Shown in pieces: positions 3,922 to 51,227 of a DNA stretch of 64,000 bases. This DNA comes from Hyposmocoma kahamanoa. Lineage: Eukaryota; Arthropoda; Insecta; Lepidoptera; Cosmopterigidae. The translations under genes were made by a program, and so were the position numbers. How positions within the stretch are numbered: position 1 is the first letter of the stretch; every line of letters starts with the position of its first letter. The DNA lies in contig NW_020654289.1 of assembly GCF_003589595.1 (NCBI RefSeq), forward strand, positions 4,045,762 through 4,109,761, given 5' to 3'. The notes beneath the pieces were generated by a model. That model had not been told where the DNA came from. It saw only the letters and a program-made list of their open reading frames with translations, and did not search any database.

Positions 3922-4289
3922 TAATAACATCGCACCTATTGTAAAATACAACACGCAACTGCATAAAAGTGATGCTTGATCATTTTAAAAACGCAATTTA
4001 CATGAAAAAACACATGCACATTTTGCATTCCGTCTCTTTTCCATAACGCACGCAATGCTTATTGAAATAGTATAACAATTAAAAGTCTATATTACATTAC
4101 TACCTTACATTTTTTCCGTACTAATGTACTAATACGGTTCATTTTGCTTGGGTCGAGCGCCAGGGTCTCTGGCTTTATTTCAGAATTTATTTAAAAAAAA
4201 AAAACAATATCAAAGCCATTTTAAAAATACATATCGTGTACTATATGTGTTCTGTTTAGTTCAATTCGAAAGGGTTGTAACCCTAACTA

Positions 4290-8875: not shown

Positions 8876-9103
8876 CATTGACTTACAAATAAATGGACGA
8901 CGGGTCTAATACAAAAACCACGAAAAAAATGTCCCAAGTCAACCTATTCGAAATTTAAATTGTTATGTCATCGCAGTATCGCGCTGTCAGTAGAACAAAT
9001 GAAGACTAAAGCGGAGTGTCGCGCTCTGTATACGATTTTAGCGCCTTACAAGTGCGGACACTTTTTAGCGCGGACCCGACGTCCATATAATTGTAAGTCA
9101 ATG
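8876..9103. mobile_element. MITE D, copy 1 (228 bp)
   Basis: It has terminal inverted repeats CATTGACTTACAA...TTGTAAGTCAATG (about 31 bp, imperfect inside) and a perfect 8-bp target duplication, GTTATCAT, at 8868-8875 and 9104-9111. There is no ORF. The 8-bp duplication and CA-starting ends fit a nonautonomous hAT-superfamily element. The copy at 41534-41761 is identical apart from one base, so both moved recently. Confidence 0.92.
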
Positions 9104-9115
9104 GTTATCATGATA

Positions 9116-9859: not shown

Positions 9860-10843
9860 CGTTAGCGTTAATGCACTTTTTCATACGAATGAATCAATTT
9901 TGAAAACATTTATGCCACTCCTCCGTGACAATCTCTGAAACATATTTTTCATACGGTGATGAAAATTGTTGACCGCGTAACTGGAAATAAATAAAAGTTA
10001 CAAGCTGCCAGGTCGAGACTGTACGCGGGATGGTTCATAAGGTCAACGTTGTTCACCTTCAAAAATTCATTTATCTGTCTGGCCGTGTGAGAACTGGCAT
10101 AATCGTGGTGCAAGATGATACGGCGTTTACGGTTATTTTTACGGAGCTTGTCAATAACTTCCGGCAAACAAATGGTCGTGTACCAATCACTATTCACGGT
10201 ACAATAATTCTCCAAAGCAACAGTAGCCACATATCCAGTTTTATTAAAAAAAGAAGCAATCATCCGATCAGAGGCACTTTGCACGCGCAACACTTTGGTT
10301 GGTTTCGGCTCAACTCGAAAGACCCATACGCTCGATTGCTGCTTTGTTTTGGGATCGTAACTATAAATCCATGTTTCGTCACCTGTTACTATGTCCCACA
10401 CTAAATTTGACGCGCCTTCGTTGAATCTGGTATTGCACCAAGTGACGCGATCCATTTTTTGAGCCTCAGTCAAATTGTGTGGGACCCGCCGCGAGCACAG
10501 CCTTTTCACACCCAAATGTTTGTGAAGTATTGATTGTATTTGACTCATGCCTATGCCTAAAGATGCCCAAATCTCATGGTATGTCACTGTCTGTTTTGAT
10601 CATACGGCGCACAGCATCGATGTTTTTGTTGTTCACAGCAGTGGACGGGAGACGTTCACGAAATTCGTCACTGAGATTCACACGACCGCGTTTGAATTCT
10701 GCAAACCAGCTATAAATAGTCGTTTTGCATGGTGCTTCATCGCCAAAAGTAGTTTGAAGCCGAGCGAAGCTTCTCTGAGCTGTTAAATTACACTTAAAGT
10801 CGTAGAAAATCATATTACGAAAATTTTCACGAGTTAAATCCAT
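9860..10843 (-). pseudogene. mariner transposase pseudogene
   Basis: Mariner transposases cut and paste DNA with a D,D34D catalytic triad. Reading from an ATG at 10843, the N-terminal half carries the paired helix-turn-helix region (MDLTRENFRNMIF..., then TTIYSWFAEFKRGR). A frameshift near 10585 is followed by the catalytic half with TGDETWIY (first Asp). HHDYASSHTA is the second Asp, but the usual Asn after it is Tyr. CNFYLFP replaces the third catalytic Asp with Asn, exactly 34 residues on. Near 9990 the frame shifts again into RGQQFSSP, with an internal stop in the C-terminal WHKCFQN segment. The protein cannot be active. Confidence 0.92.
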
Positions 10844-15795: not shown

Positions 15796-15827
15796 AGTGA
15801 CGGAACGAACTAGTCGTGCACCCGATG
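15796..15827 (+). repeat. Repeat A, copy 5, left piece
   Basis: AGTGACGGAACGAACTAGTC and the following bases are the start of repeat A, cut at CGATG by the Transib-like element. The rest resumes at 20041. Confidence 0.85.
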
Positions 15828-15873
15828 CACAGTGTGTTACTTTACTTTAGTTGCGGACATCCTCGTATTATGT

Positions 15874-17079
15874 TCGATTTCAATAGATTGAATCCTAATA
15901 AATTATTCTAAGAAACAGCCTTTTCGATATTTACCTTTGTTATGGAGATATAATTGTTTTTTCAAACGGTCGCTGAATTCAAGAAAAATGTTTTTGCCTA
16001 TGTGTTCCCCAAAATATGTGAAACTTCCCTTTGTAAAAAATACTTATTAAACTTTATTAAATGTAAAAATCGTAAATTCTTAAGCGCATAAAAAAGCGAC
16101 AAAAAAAATATTTTGTTAATTTTATAAATATATTTATATAAAATTAACCGTACTAAATTAGCATTTTTATTAACTTCTACTACATTAATGAATATATCGA
16201 ATAAAGAAAAAGTAAACTTTTATCTCGGAAGATCTCGGATATACCGCGTTTCTAAGGTTTTTTTTTATTTCTATGGAAATAGGGTTGTCACAAAATGTAT
16301 AAATTCGTACCCGACTACGTTAATCAATGGAGGGTTATGTGTTAAAATAACAAGAACAACAACAATAATAATATATTTATTTTGAATATGAATAGACTTT
16401 TACGTGGTAGTAGATACAAAAATGTGAACTTATTTTAGTGTTAGTAAATATAGAATTTTATTCATACATGTGAGCTTTGATAGCCCGCAATAATTGAAAT
16501 TCCTTTATTAGATTCAGATAACATAGTCCATATGGTACATTAATTGAATTTTTACGTTTTTAAGTTACGTTGGTTAAATTTTAAATCAAGTGAAATAAAT
16601 GAAACTGACGTAAATATGTCAAAAATAATTTAAATCCATGTACATAGTATTGGCATATTTTGTTATAATATTCACGTATGTGCATTACGTTGTGTGAATA
16701 AAGATAAATTATCCTGGCAAATGCTGAAAGCTCATTCATTTTACTCATTATCGGAATGCAGAATGATTTCGTCTGTCAGTTTCGTATCGTGATATCAGCA
16801 GCTTCAATATTAATGTCTTCTGATGGTAACGAACATTTTCCGTATCCACTCTTAGAAGGCGAAGAACTTTATCAGGTATAGGTAGAGATTTTTTATGTTT
16901 GTGACATGTACTAAGTGTCAAAGAGGATAAATAAGGGTCAGACGATTCCAGTGTACGGTGAAATAAGTCTGTGATGATCGTTTTCCGATCCTAATTTCGT
17001 GTATGGTGCTCTCAATAATAACGTCAAAACTTGTTCTTTGATTCACCGGCTTGTTCCGATAACATACCTTTTGGTAATT
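15874..17079. other. Interior of the Transib-like element, no ORF recognised
   Basis: AT-rich sequence between the left inverted repeat and the internal duplication. Frames of 65-110 codons exist (for example the minus-strand frame 16918-17250) but have no similarity I recognise to RAG1-like or other transposases. Confidence 0.5.
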
Positions 17080-17937
17080 TGCTACAATGAATATAAAATA
17101 TTGCACTTTGCAGACAGGATACATATTCAGTGACAACCCTAACTCAAAATTTAAAAATTCAATATTTCTGATCACTTGTGTTTGTTGCATCTGGATTTTT
17201 TTACGGTAGTACTTATTACTATAATTAACAAATCCGCGTTGAAAAAACATACTAACTACAGAGTCTTCAGAAAAAATGGATTAACCTACAGAAAAATAAA
17301 ATATTGTGGTCTAGGATAGCATGATTTTTTTCTGGACTTATTGGTGCTTTCAGTATATTATAACATGAATTATTTTATGAAAAATCATTTACAAGAAAGA
17401 AGATAATCTGATTTTATGGTCTCTGTGGATTTTTCTCGACTTTTTACATTCCCCTAAAACTATGATAGATATAGCCAGGAGAGTTTAATTACGAGCTTTG
17501 TTTGAGTATTATCTTTCTAAAAGACACATAAAACGAGGATGTCCGCAACTAAGGCAAAATAATACACTGCCTGGGACAAGCAGGTAATATCTATTTCGCT
17601 CGCAGCTTTAGATTATTTTACAGTTATCTATCTATCTAACGGTGCATTGGCTAGGGCTGAAAATTGTTAAAAGCTCTATAACGTTTATTTTCCTTCAATT
17701 TTATACTTGACTTCGTAAGTTCGTCAAAACCCGGTACCCGATACAAAAGCGCATTCCATGTTAGCAAGGTACCGAGTTGTAAGTACAATATGTATCCAAT
17801 TTTCTGACCTTTGATCAAGGAGCATATACGGTTCATCCCAGAATTAGGCGAACATTCTGGTTTCACGCTCAAATTGAGGGTAAAAAATATTTAGTATTAA
17901 ATACTTGCTAAGTTTTGTTCAAATTTAACTATATTGC

Positions 17938-18226
17938 CATTGACTTACAATTATATGGACGTCGGGTCCGCGCTAAAAAGTGTCCGAACTTATAGGGCGT
18001 TAACTAAAATCATATACAGAGCGTCATTCACGCTTTAGTCTTCGTTTGTTCGACTGACAGCGAAGCAAGTAAAATTAGACAGTACTGCGATGACATTACA
18101 ATTTAAATTCAACGTTTTAGCTTTTTCATATTCCTTTACATGTCACTACGTTTAAATAGGTTGACTTGGGACATTTTTTCGTGGTTTTTGTATTAGGCCC
18201 GTCGTCCATTTATTTGTAAGTCAATG
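17938..18226. mobile_element. MITE D, copy 2 (289 bp, long form)
   Basis: It has CATTGACTTACAA ends and GACGTCGGGTCCGCGC inside, in the opposite orientation to copy 1. The flanking 8-mers TATATTGC and GATATTGT match at six positions. It contains about 60 bp, including a TTTTAGCTTTTTCATATTCC segment, that the 228-bp form lacks, so it is closer to a parental form. It lies inside the Transib-like element. Confidence 0.88.
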
Positions 18227-18690
18227 GATATTGTTATAAAATGCTTCTATTTACCTAATTTTCTTATTCAAACTCATTTAAAAACACCACAAATATTTGG
18301 AAGTTATATTCTATTGTTTTAAATCAGATCAGATCTACAAGTTTTTGGCCAATGTCCGAAAAATGGCCTCTGTAATATATTGTGCCACTTTAGAATCGTA
18401 GGGTAGGGTCCCGCTGTATCACCAGTCCTCTCGAAGAAAATAAAATTAAGAAGTGAGTAAAGTAAGATATGAATATATAATATTGCGCTTTGCAGGCAGG
18501 ATAAATATTCAGTGACAACCCTAACACAAAATTTAAAAATTCAATATTTCTGAGCTCCTCTGTTAGTCGCATCTGGTTTTTATGTGGTAGTACTTATTAC
18601 TGTAATTAACATCCGCGTTGAAAAAAAATGCTAATATGTAGAAATTGTATAGAAAAAAAAAACGAAATCATAGAAAAAAATAATTGTGTT

Positions 18691-19848
18691 ATAAAAGTAA
18701 CGGGACTTACTCGCGTAGTATTTTAGTCGGACCGGGGTCTGTTGTCGGGAACAGTCCAGCACACAGAACTCACCACGTGGTTACCACTAACATCTGCAGC
18801 TGCATACCGAGCGCCATGAAGACACGGCTTCCAAGTAGGTGGCAAGCTCCAGCCTCCATATCGATTAAAATTTGGTCGTCTACTTATTTCAATAGCCTCT
18901 CGGATTTTGCGGGGCACAAAATACTTCTCCCGCGCTAAAACCTTAGCTTTATCAAACCTAATGTAGTGACCAGCACCGGAGCTCAGAAAGTGGTCTGCCA
19001 CCGCAGATCCATTGACATCTTGGTTCTTCATGGGTCGGATATGCTCAGCTAGCCTAGTAGCCACGTTCCGTCTCGTTTCGCCGACGTAACACTTGCCGCA
19101 GTCACAGGGAACCATATAGACACCGGAGACCCCCAGAGGGTCTCTGTCCTTTGGAGAGCGAAGCAATTGTCGCAGCTGTGTGAGAGGACGAAATATTGTC
19201 TTGATGCTGTACCTTCGGCGTAACAAGTTTCCAATCACATCCGTCACCCCCCTGACATAAGGTAAGAACCGCTCTCTCTACCGATGCCGGTCGAGGCCTC
19301 GTTGATGCATTTGCCATACGCCAACTCTGTTTCCACTTGTAACCGTTACCAGCCAACACATCCTTCACATGATTTAGCTCACCATCTATGTAATCCGGGT
19401 CGCAAAGTTTCAAAGCTCTATTAATGAGCGTCCGCGGAACTGAGGCTAAATGTGCCGGGTGGTGATGTGAATCCACTCTCAGGTATCTATCCGTGTGCGT
19501 TGGTTTCCGATACACCGCATGAGACAACCGACCGTTATGTTCACGTCTCACCAACACATCCAAGAGAGGAAGAACCTCGTTCTGCTCACATTCCACGTTG
19601 AAGGTGATCTTCGGGTGAACGCTGTTTAAGTGTGCCAATAGCGACTCTACTCCCTCTTTAGGCATAATGGCAAATACGTCATCTACATAGCGCCACCAGT
19701 ATCTCGGTTCGAATGGAATGTTCACCAGCGCAGTATCCTCAAACTATTCTATAAATATGTTGGTGGTTCGGTGGTGGCTCACCAGAGCTATCGGTGATCC
19801 TATTGCTACGCCGCCGATTTGTAAAAAGGAATCACCCCTCCACTTAAA
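18691..19848 (-). mobile_element. Penelope-like element, copy 1 (5'-truncated)
   Basis: This minus-strand Penelope-like retroelement carries the C-terminal half of the reverse transcriptase and the GIY-YIG endonuclease. Its 3' end is the ATAAAAGTAACGGGACTTAC terminus also found in copy 2. Its 5' end is cut within the RT near 19848. It is inserted in the second copy of the internal duplication of the Transib-like element, so it is younger than that element. Relative to copy 2 it lacks about 110 bp just inside the 3' terminus. Confidence 0.9.
18723..19845 (-). pseudogene. Penelope RT/GIY-YIG polyprotein pseudogene
   Basis: Reading on the minus strand, an RT segment GVAIGSPIALV near 19800 is followed by an in-frame stop, then RYWWRYVDDVFAI with the YVDD catalytic motif, and LPLLDVLVRREHNGRLSHA and YRKPTHTDRYL of the Penelope RT thumb. 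A frameshift near 19250 leads into the GIY-YIG domain: GVYMVPCDCGKCYVGETRR, then a RLAEHIR helix. The endonuclease frame (18723-19247) is open for 174 codons. The stop, frameshift and missing N-terminal RT mean it is not functional as written. Confidence 0.92.
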
Positions 19849-20040
19849 ATATATTAAAGAAAAATCATTTACAGGAAAGGGAATAATCTGATTTTATGGA
19901 TCTTTCTCGATTTTCTAAGTTTCTCTAAAACTATAATAGATGCAGCCTGGAGAGTTTTTAGGAACTTTGTTTGAATATTATTTTTCTAAAAAACACGTAA
20001 AATGAGGATGTCCGCAACTAAGGTAAAATAACACACTGTG

Positions 20041-20285
20041 CGATGGTGCGCTACACGCCTGTCCATTAAAACTTGCAGTGCCACTCAAAGCTTTAAAACG
20101 CAAAGATCTGAGGAGCACTGCCACGGAGCCCGTCACCCTGAGACGTAAGTTGACAAGTCTCAAGATCGGAACACAGTATTGCTAACTTTACCGCTTGGCG
20201 GCAGAAATAGGTAACGTGGCAATACTTCCCTGGACGAACTCTTTCACAAGGAGCTCTACTAAAAAGGATCTCTACCTCTTTTCTG
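20041..20285 (+). repeat. Repeat A, copy 5, right piece
   Basis: It continues the copy interrupted at 15827, beginning with the second CGATG and TGCGCTACACGCCTGTCC, with both hairpin arms, and ending with the CTTTCACAAGGAGCTCTACT terminus. A short palindrome, CTCTTTTCTGGT...ACCAGAAAAGAG, lies just right of it at 20277-20308. Confidence 0.85.
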
Positions 20286-25815: not shown

Positions 25816-25878
25816 ACGGACGAGGCACCAGCACGTGCCGTTTACCTGATTTTGATATGACATAATTCTGTGATATAT

Positions 25879-26124
25879 ACAAACCACGAAAAAAATGTCC
25901 CAAGTCAACCTATTTAAACGTGACATGTAAAGGAATATGAAAAAGCTAAAACGTTGAATTTAAATTGTAATGTTATCGCAGTACTGTCTAATTTTACTTG
26001 CTTCGCTGTCAGTCGAACAAACGAAGACTAAAGCGTGAATGACGCTCTGTATACGATTTTAACGACCTATAAGTTCGGACACTTTTTAGCGCGGACCCGA
26101 CGTCCATATAATTGTAAGTCAATG
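25879..26124. mobile_element. MITE D, copy 3 (left end deleted)
   Basis: It matches the long form of MITE D but lacks the outer 35 bp of the left inverted repeat; the right end TTGTAAGTCAATG is intact. GTGATATA left and ATGATATA right may be the remains of the 8-bp duplication. Confidence 0.8.
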
Positions 26125-26186
26125 ATGATATATAATATAACTAGCACCGTGCCGGTCTGCCAAGTTCGATTCTTTTTTTGAATTAC

Positions 26187-41287: not shown

Positions 41288-42080
41288 GCCTGATTCAGAA
41301 CTTTTCGATATTTAAACCGAATCGTTCAATTGGTTATTGTTCTCGAATCGGAGGGCGCTTACCGAGCTATCCAGAACATTCGAGTTAAATGTTCGATTCG
41401 GATACGATATCATTATCCAACAGCGTTTACGGAGTTAATCGGTGAAATAGATTATAAGAAAAATTAAAATCCTTTTATATACATTTTTAAGACTTTAAAA
41501 GCGTAAAATATAGGAAAGCATTTGTCTTGCATTCATTGACTTACAAATAAATGGACGACGGGTCTAATACAAAAACCACGAAAAAAATGTCCCAAGTCAA
41601 CCTATTCGAAATTTAAATTGTAATGTCATCGCAGTATCGCGCTGTCAGTAGAACAAATGAAGACTAAAGCGGAGTGTCGCGCTCTGTATACGATTTTAGC
41701 GCCTTACAAGTGCGGACACTTTTTAGCGCGGACCCGACGTCCATATAATTGTAAGTCAATGCTTGCATTGAAATAAATTAATAAAGTTGAACAAAATCCA
41801 GACTTTATTTAAAATAATAAAAGATTTCCATATTTAATTCTTGCTTTGTAAACAATAGGACGTTCGGTAGCTTACATTCGATATCTCTGTTCTGAATAAT
41901 GTTTTAGCCTTTGCCAGTCGAAAAGTTCGAGTAAACGTACGGGTGTGACGTCATTTCGGTTCGGTTTCGAATACGACATTGGACGTTCGATTGGGGTGTT
42001 ATGAATAAAAATGAAAAGAAATCGCATGATATCAAATTGAATCGGTCGACAACTGAGTTATCGTAAGGTTCTGAATCGAC
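41288..42080. mobile_element. Putative TIR element split by MITE D copy 4
   Basis: GATTCAGAAC near 41290 faces GTTCTGAATC near 42069, and both halves are rich in TTCGA/TCGAA words (TCGAATCGGAGG, GTTCGATTCGG, TTCGGTTTCGAATACG). Removing MITE D leaves about 560 bp. No ORF is seen and the target duplication is unclear. Confidence 0.4.
41534..41761. mobile_element. MITE D, copy 4 (228 bp, very young)
   Basis: Perfect 8-bp duplication CTTGCATT (41526-41533 and 41762-41769). Sequence is identical to copy 1 except one base (GTAATG for GTTATG). The near identity of two unlinked noncoding copies means recent transposition from one source. Confidence 0.93.
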
Positions 42081-50078: not shown

Positions 50079-51075
50079 GGGTTGAGTGCAACGTTGGCGA
50101 CCGCGTTACGTCTAGCACTGCGCGCTGCGGCTCTCTGCGAGCGCGCCGATGACGCAGTCCGCAGTGGGGAACTCGGGGTGCTGATACGTTGCGTCAGCGC
50201 GTCCTGGAACTCTTCTTCGCTACTGCTATCCATAGGATTGTTGTTGGGAACAGTCCAGCACAGAGAGCTCACCACATCGTTACTACTAACATCTGCAGCT
50301 GCATACCGAGCGCCATGAAAACACGGCTTCCAGGTCGGTGGCGAGATCCAGCCTCCGTCTCTATTAAAATTTGGTCGCCTACTTATTTCAATAGCCTCTC
50401 GGATTTTGCGGGCACAAAATACTTGTCCCTCGCTAAAACCTTAGCTTTATCAAACCGAATGTAGCACCGGAGCTCAGAAAGTGGTCCGCCACCGCAGATC
50501 CATTGACATCTTGGTTCTTCATGGATCGGATATGCTCAGCTAGCCTAGTAGCCACGTTCCGTCTCGTTTCGCCGACATAACACTTGCCGCAGTCACAGAG
50601 AACCATATAGACACCGGGGACCCCCAGAGGGTCTCTGTCCTTTGGAGAGCGCCGCAATTGTCGCAGCTGTGTGAGAGAACGAAATATTATCTTGATGCTG
50701 TACTTTCGGCGTAACAAGTTTCCAATCACATTCGTCACCCCCCTGACATAAGGTAAGTACGCTACTGCTCTATCTGCCGATGCCGGTCGAGGCCTCGTTG
50801 ATGCATTTGCCACACGCCAACTCAGTTTCCACTTGTAACCGTTACCAACCAACACATCCTTCACATGATTTAGCTCAGCATCTATGTAATCCGGGTCGCA
50901 AAGTTTCAAAATGTGCCGGGTGGTGATGTGAACCCGCTCTCAGGTATCTATCCGTGTGCGTTGGTTTCCTATACACCGCATGAGACAACCGACCGTTATG
51001 TTCACGTCTCACCAACACATCCAAGAAAGGAAGAACCCCGTTCTGCTCACATTCCAAGGTGAAGGTGATTTTCGG
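50078..51075 (-). pseudogene. Penelope RT thumb and GIY-YIG pseudogene, copy 2
   Basis: Minus-strand pieces: LPFLDVLVRREHNGRLSHAV and YRKPTHTDRYLRA (frame 50875-51057), a deletion relative to copy 1, then LCDPDYIDAELNHVKDVLVG and the endonuclease GVYMVLCDCGKCYVGETRR with NVATRLAEHIR (50433-50909). A frameshift near 50460 separates the C-terminal part, which ends with an Arg/Ala-rich tail at 50078 (stop in AACCCCTGA). YVDD and earlier RT motifs are missing. Confidence 0.9.
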
Positions 51076-51227
51076 GTGAAAGTTGCATTCAACCCCTGAA
51101 GAAGACCATCGATTATGGTCAAAACTAGTCGGACCGCTTTCGACTAAAATACTACGCGAGTAAGTCCCGTTACTTTTATATTATAAAGTGCTCCTACTAC
51201 TGATCCACCGAGATAGTAGTCCCCTTA

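What the first reader, a model, noticed from the sequence alone, without database searches (positions are those of the whole stretch)
15828..20040. 4.2-kb element with RSS-heptamer ends (CACAGTG) and 5-bp CGATG duplication
Both termini carry the exact heptamer CACAGTG within about 46-bp inverted repeats, and the target duplication is 5 bp and CNNNG-like. These are diagnostic features of Transib, the superfamily related to RAG1 of V(D)J recombination. The two flanks rejoin into a single repeat A copy, so the borders are fixed by an independent reconstruction. The interior has no transposase I recognise, so it may be a large nonautonomous or unusual member.
Basis: partly seen in the sequence, partly recalled or inferred. 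Interest (0 to 1): 0.75.

Follow-up and report, generated by a model that had tools for sequence, protein, structure and literature searches.

The report
Dead Transib transposon with RSS-like ends

Summary
The element spans 15828-20040; both ends start CACAGTG, the inverted repeats match at 89% over 47 bp, CGATG is duplicated, and the rejoined flanks align without a gap to other repeat-A copies. I fetched 20 other copies from the same 728-Mb genome; 16 showed both ends. With the window copy, 10 of 17 have an exact 5-bp duplication at the fixed border, none at 4, 6, 7 or 8 bp, against 3 of 272 between different copies. Six of those 10 are CNNNG (3.5% in the window, p=4e-7).

Transib is supported beyond the ends: 10 of 17 copies, the window's included (16844-17089, minus strand), hold a decayed C-terminal transposase piece matching Hztransib (PDB 6pqn) and a genomic Transib. 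All 8 copies spanning the place share one stop, so the founder was probably dead.

The plain unit is about 2.8 kb; a nested 291-bp MITE and a Penelope-like piece add the rest. In 12 of 17 copies the right end is doubled, and 0 of 11 inner ends read CACTGTG. The genome holds at least 142 Transib transposase matches, but the matching helper was not identified.

The parts
15823..15827 (.). left copy of target duplication CGATG
   Evidence: junction alignment
15828..15873 (+). left terminal inverted repeat, starts CACAGTG
   Evidence: the left 72 bases match 39 other places in the genome at 81-94%
16844..17089 (-). decayed C-terminal piece of a Transib transposase, with in-frame stops
   Evidence: tblastn E 7e-9 (47.4 bits) with the L051 Transib protein, 1.6e-7 (43.1 bits) with Hztransib 6pqn; frame; best score in 165 kb outside elements 24.3 bits
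17087..17569 (.). inner right-end block with degenerate right TIR (CACTGCC instead of CACTGTG)
   Evidence: inner and outer right ends separate in a tree
17570..17936 (.). first part of the segment between the two right ends, present in other copies of the family
   Evidence: L034, L035, L042, L043 and others match up to relative 2108-2109
17937..18227 (.). nested 291-bp TIR element (MITE-like) with ATATTG at 17931-17936 and 18228-18233
   Evidence: no match in 15 of the 16 other elements; L043 carries a 95% match at another place; other copies in window at 25875-26132, 41531-41761, 8876-9104; flanks
18228..18468 (.). second part of the segment between the two right ends
18469..18688 (.). outer right-end block, part 1
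   Evidence: 18469-18634 is 88% to 17087-17255
18689..19846 (-). nested Penelope-like retroelement fragment (reverse-transcriptase-like and GIY-YIG-like frames; label by eye and recall)
   Evidence: no match in the 16 other elements; second copy at 50239-51080, 89%; Pfam negative for both frames, PDB negative for the one frame sent
19847..20040 (.). outer right-end block, part 2, with right terminal inverted repeat 19995-20040 ending CACTGTG
20041..20045 (.). right copy of target duplication CGATG

Best explanation
It is a nonautonomous, internally deleted Transib transposon. Shown: CAC-starting inverted ends, 5-bp CNNNG-biased duplications, tens of copies in the genome, and in 10 of 17 copies a dead remnant of the Transib transposase C-terminus. 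Inferred: it moved by cut-and-paste, with a Transib transposase made elsewhere in the genome binding the roughly 46-bp ends, cutting at the CAC, and inserting with a 5-bp stagger. The founder of the family had lost most of the gene and carried two right ends in a row. The inner one lacks the terminal CAC, so the outer one served as the working end and the DNA between them travelled along. The window copy inserted into a SINE-like repeat and was hit by a MITE and a Penelope-like element.
For: Empty-site alignment. Genomic matches (40 places, one the window's own and at least one the right end of another match's element, L031; 66 candidates, 40 scored). TSDs exact 5 bp in 10 of 17, control 3 of 272; CNNNG 6 of 10, p=3.7e-7. 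Transposase remnant in 10 of 17 copies, best E 5e-10 to Hztransib, weakest in L031 (4e-4) and L038 (2e-4), against nothing above 24.3 bits in 165 kb of surrounding DNA. A bona fide Transib in the same genome (L051: phmmer 5e-74 to 6pqn; ends CACTATGG, near-duplicate CGGCG/CAGCG). RAG1 family PF12940 over cut-off in 9 places, 0 of 14 control genomes. At least 142 matches to the L051 protein, many with open frames of 650-703 aa. Inner and outer right ends split cleanly in a tree, edge support 0.993. None of the 11 inner ends seen reads CACTGTG.
Against: No copy seen encodes a recognisable working transposase, and no autonomous element with these ends was found: the remnant search of the genome did not complete. 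PF12940 does not hit the remnant. Seven of 17 copies show no remnant, and 7 of 17 lack an exact duplication (L036, L042 and L044 differ by one base; L045 has it with one extra base; L038, L043 and L046 fit poorly). Four of the 20 fetched copies gave no right end (L033, L047, L049, L050). I chose the right ends by eye with the flanks in view, which favours matching duplications; the control only partly guards against this. Neither of the two Transib genes whose surroundings I read shows this TIR (L051 whole; L052 one side only).
Confidence: 0.94

Rival explanations
1. The ends belong to another cut-and-paste superfamily (a hAT with short duplications, Chapaev/CACTA) and the Transib fragment was captured later as cargo.
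For: No autonomous element with these ends was seen. Seven of 17 copies lack the remnant.
Against: 5-bp duplications with CNNNG bias are those reported for Transib (PMC1852546, PMC4735498; passages) and do not fit the 8-bp hAT or 2-4-bp CACTA lengths tabulated in PMC9033116 (passages). The remnant's 3' end faces the left TIR at about 1 kb, as the 3' end of an element's own gene would (inference).
Confidence: 0.04
2. A RAG-like (RAG1L-RAG2L) transposon derivative rather than Transib.
For: RAG-like transposons also have CAC ends and 5-bp duplications (PMC7204232, passages).
Against: The remnant matches the insect Transib protein. The protostome RAG-like consensus CACTWMCAAACKTYKBB (PMC7204232) differs from CACAGTGTGTTATTTT. 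No RAG2 was sought.
Confidence: 0.01
3. Chance inverted repeat and chance 5-bp match.
For: A lone 5-bp match has odds near 1 in 1000.
Against: Empty-site alignment, only hit in the window scan, and the same structure in other genomic copies.
Confidence: 0.005

Closest known systems
Hztransib (Helicoverpa zea; PMC1852546 passages; PDB 6pqn)
   Same: 5-bp duplication (GCTCG there), inverted ends, and C-terminal transposase sequence alignable at 40-43% over 54-70 residues in seven copies
   Different: Hztransib is 3518 bp and encodes a transposase; this family is gene-dead, has a doubled right end in 12 of 17 copies and, as recalled, different terminal bases
Transib of the same genome, L051 (C1004:267200-271600)
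   Same: Transib transposase, CAC ends, 5-bp near-duplicate CGGCG/CAGCG
   Different: ends CACTATGGAAA, unlike CACAGTGTGTTATTTT
Transib MITEs of Helicoverpa (table of PMC9033116, passages: two families in H. armigera, one in H. zea)
   Same: 5-bp duplications; MITEs, hence without a working gene
   Different: those are 75-564 bp; this unit is about 2.8 kb with a coding remnant and a double right end
V(D)J recombination signal (RSS) / RAG
   Same: heptamer CACAGTG
   Different: no match of 5 or more of 9 bases to the recalled nonamer ACAAAAACC within the first 54 bp of the TIR string tested; no antigen-receptor context was looked for

Membership tests
Transib superfamily | 5-bp target site duplications | tested here: met
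   10 of 17 exact, 0 of 17 at 4, 6, 7 or 8 bp, 1 of 17 at 3 and 2 of 17 at 2 bp; empty site
Transib superfamily | C/G-rich CNNNG-like target (CGNCG in PMC4735498) | tested here: met
   6 of 10 exact duplications CNNNG, 3.5% in the window
Transib superfamily | terminal inverted repeats starting CAC | tested here: met
   left end CACAGTG in 11 of 17, right end in 10 of 17
Transib superfamily | sequence kinship to the RAG1-like Transib transposase | tested here: met
   dead C-terminal remnant in 10 of 17 copies by tblastn (control); the profile PF12940 itself does not hit it
Transib superfamily | intact transposase gene (autonomous element) | tested here: not met
   no open Transib frame of 90 aa or more was recognised in the 16 other elements (by eye); shared stop. 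This bars 'autonomous Transib', not membership as a nonautonomous element
Transib superfamily | autonomous partner with the same ends | tested here: inconclusive
   genome search for the remnant did not complete; two other Transib genes looked at do not show these ends
hAT | 8-bp duplication | tested here: not met
   0 of 17
RSS (V(D)J signal) | heptamer plus nonamer at 12 or 23 bp | tested here: not met
   heptamer only; TTAGTTGCG and CATCCTCGT at those places (nonamer recalled)
RAG-like transposon | RAG2-like gene | not tested
   no search for RAG2 was made

The most novel reading that the evidence does not exclude
A Transib macro-transposon: two tandem right ends fused into one mobile unit that spread only after the inner end lost its CAC, so that nature ran the heptamer-mutant experiment and the intervening DNA (about 0.6 kb in the window copy without its MITE) became lasting cargo, mobilised in trans in a genome where Transib is still young and plentiful.
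Probability: 0.35. Interest if true: 0.4.

Novelty: new member of a known kind. Interest (0 to 1): 0.3.

Why it matters
It is a clean, independently bordered example of a nonautonomous Transib family whose commonest terminal heptamer equals that of the V(D)J signal, without the nonamer. Inner right ends that lack CAC beside outer ones that keep it give a natural check of the rule that CAC is needed for cutting. The host genome carries at least 142 Transib matches; 26 of them have no stop and near-identical scores (255.5-258.2 bits), 15 of these with an open frame of exactly 657 aa, which would suit a study of active insect-type Transib.

Tried and rejected
Early idea that the window element was a private composite of two copies: rejected, since 12 of 17 copies have the double right end and the doubling predates their spread. 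Idea that the interior carries an intact gene: the longest frames inside the element belong to the Penelope-like piece, and the other frames tried reached no Pfam cut-off (best chance-level E 0.02) and no PDB match below E 0.4. The transposase remnant was missed by those searches and emerged only by tblastn with the genomic Transib. Long copies L037 (5795 bp) and L038 (4093 bp) looked promising for a transposase, but their large frames look like a LINE reverse transcriptase and a mariner-type transposase (labels by eye, no family search). Viral contigs: no exact match to an 18-base TIR core. L052, beside one of the abundant 657-aa frames, showed no matching TIR in 1.2 kb; a possible CACCGTG end followed by CAGTG is unverified, as only one side was read. 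Kapitonov and Jurka 2005 is not held. An earlier count said more than 25 copies have the 657-aa frame; on recount it is 15 of 26.

Full report
Observation. The element lies at 15828-20040 with CGATG on both sides. Its ends form an inverted repeat of 47 bp at 89%, each starting CACAGTG. It sits in a SINE-like repeat with many copies in the window. Rejoining the flanks with a single CGATG gives a sequence that runs without a gap through the junction in at least 5 of 11 other copies aligned, so the 5-bp duplication is fixed by an independent yardstick. In a scan for CAC-starting 11-bp inverted repeats with a 5-bp duplication, nothing else in the window qualified.

Copies in the genome. The window is C1063:4045762-4109761 of an unnamed 728-Mb assembly. 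The left 72 bases match 40 places (66 candidates, 40 scored): the window itself and 39 others at 81-94%, of which one (C516:5097749-5097794) is the right end of the element in L031. Sixteen showed a right end; L033, L047, L049 and L050 did not. With the window copy, 17 pairs of ends were compared. The flanks match over exactly 5 bp in 10 of 17, over 2 bp in 2, over 3 bp in 1, and over 4, 6, 7 or 8 bp in none. Left and right flanks of different copies match over 5 bp in 3 of 272. The exact duplications are CGATG, CGGCG, CTACA, CGTCG, AAGTG (twice), CATCG, CAGCG, CGCGG and CAAGT; six of 10 are CNNNG against 3.5% of window positions. Of the other seven, three are one base off (TAATG/AAATG, AGACG/GGACG, CGACA/CGACG) and one has AGTCG with an extra base; L038, L043 and L046 (CACCG/CACAT) fit poorly. 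I picked the right ends with the flanks in view, which is a weakness.

Anatomy. L035 (2842 bp, AAGTG on both sides) shows the plain structure. The window element follows it at relative 1-2109, 2400-2850 and 4020-4213. What it has in addition is a 291-bp inverted-repeat element with its own ATATTG duplication (17937-18227) and a Penelope-like piece (18689-19846) that has an 89% relative at 50239-51080. I recognise the latter by eye from YVDD and GIY-YIG-like motifs; Pfam gave nothing for its two frames and PDB nothing for the one frame sent. The 16 other elements vary from 875 to 5795 bp; at least L037 and L038 are long because of nested elements (by eye).

Double right end. Twelve of 17 copies have a second right-end block inside; L036, L039, L041, L045 and L048 showed none. 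Twelve inner and 15 outer blocks (outer blocks of L034 and L038 left out) split cleanly in a tree, edge support 0.993, with 90.7% identity among inner, 91.3% among outer and 85.6% between them. The doubling is therefore older than the spread of these copies. Of the 11 inner ends seen (window copy and ten) none reads CACTGTG; nine read CACTGCC or CACTGCTG. Outer ends read CACTGTG in 10 of 17. Since CAC is described as functionally critical (PMC7204232, passages), the simplest reading, which is inference, is that the inner end is uncuttable and the outer end took over.

The transposase. RAG1 family PF12940 hits 9 places in the genome over its cut-off and 0 of 14 control genomes. One of them, L051, encodes a 283-aa frame with phmmer E 5e-74 to 6pqn, which I take to be the Hztransib transposase (entry named only as a DNA-mediated transposase; identity recalled), between ends CACTATGG with CGGCG/CAGCG outside. 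tblastn of this protein and of the printed 6pqn stretch against the 17 elements finds the same remnant on the minus strand in 10 of 17: win, L031, L032, L034, L035, L037, L038, L039, L042 and L043 (weak in L031 and L038). In the window it is 16844-17089 (E 7e-9 and 1.6e-7). The same search of 165 kb of surrounding DNA gave 24.3 bits at best. In all 8 copies whose match spans the place, the frame has a stop after NKF (DKF in L034, with a gap in L039) where 6pqn reads on. The family was thus probably dead at its founding and moved by a transposase in trans. This turns a resemblance of ends into a test of membership.

Helpers. The L051 protein has 142 matches in the genome (137 of 837 candidates scored), in several lineages. 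In one, 26 matches have no stop and 255.5-258.2 bits, and 15 of these have an open frame of exactly 657 aa. So transposase supply is no obstacle. Which lineage recognises the CACAGTGTGTTATTTT ends is unknown: the decisive remnant search did not complete in 11 attempts, and neither of the two genes I looked at (L051; one side of L052) shows these ends.

Comparison with print. Papers were seen as passages only. Hztransib has 5-bp duplications and 3518 bp (PMC1852546). CGNCG is named as the Transib target (PMC4735498). Some Transib heptamers are stated to equal the RSS heptamer (PMC6941560). Short Transib MITEs are tabulated for Helicoverpa (PMC9033116). The finding is therefore a new family within a known kind, as far as these papers go; whether this family is in a repeat library was not tested. 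The double right end is the only unusual trait; I made no literature search for it and claim no priority.

Noticed in passing
genome G000, e.g. C528:320383-321168, C140:9074320-9075105: 26 Transib-type matches without stops and with near-identical scores, 15 with a 657-aa open frame, suggesting a young, possibly active Transib lineage.
   Followed up: partly
L052 (C528:321050-322250), about base 485: A possible 3' end CACCGTG followed by CAGTG after the transposase C-terminus; the other side was not read.
   Followed up: partly
window 17937-18227; also 25875-26132, 41531-41761, 8876-9104: A short inverted-repeat element (CCATTGACTTACAA...) with ATATTG on both sides in the copy at 17937; several copies in the window.
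   Followed up: partly
window 18689-19846 and 50239-51080: Two Penelope-like fragments, 89% alike, with reverse-transcriptase-like and GIY-YIG-like frames (label by eye).
   Followed up: partly
window 9949-10587 (-) and L038 element, minus strand: Mariner-like transposase frames (label by eye).
   Followed up: no
window 20042-20260 and other places listed: SINE-like repeat A, the target of the insertion; many copies in both orientations.
   Followed up: partly
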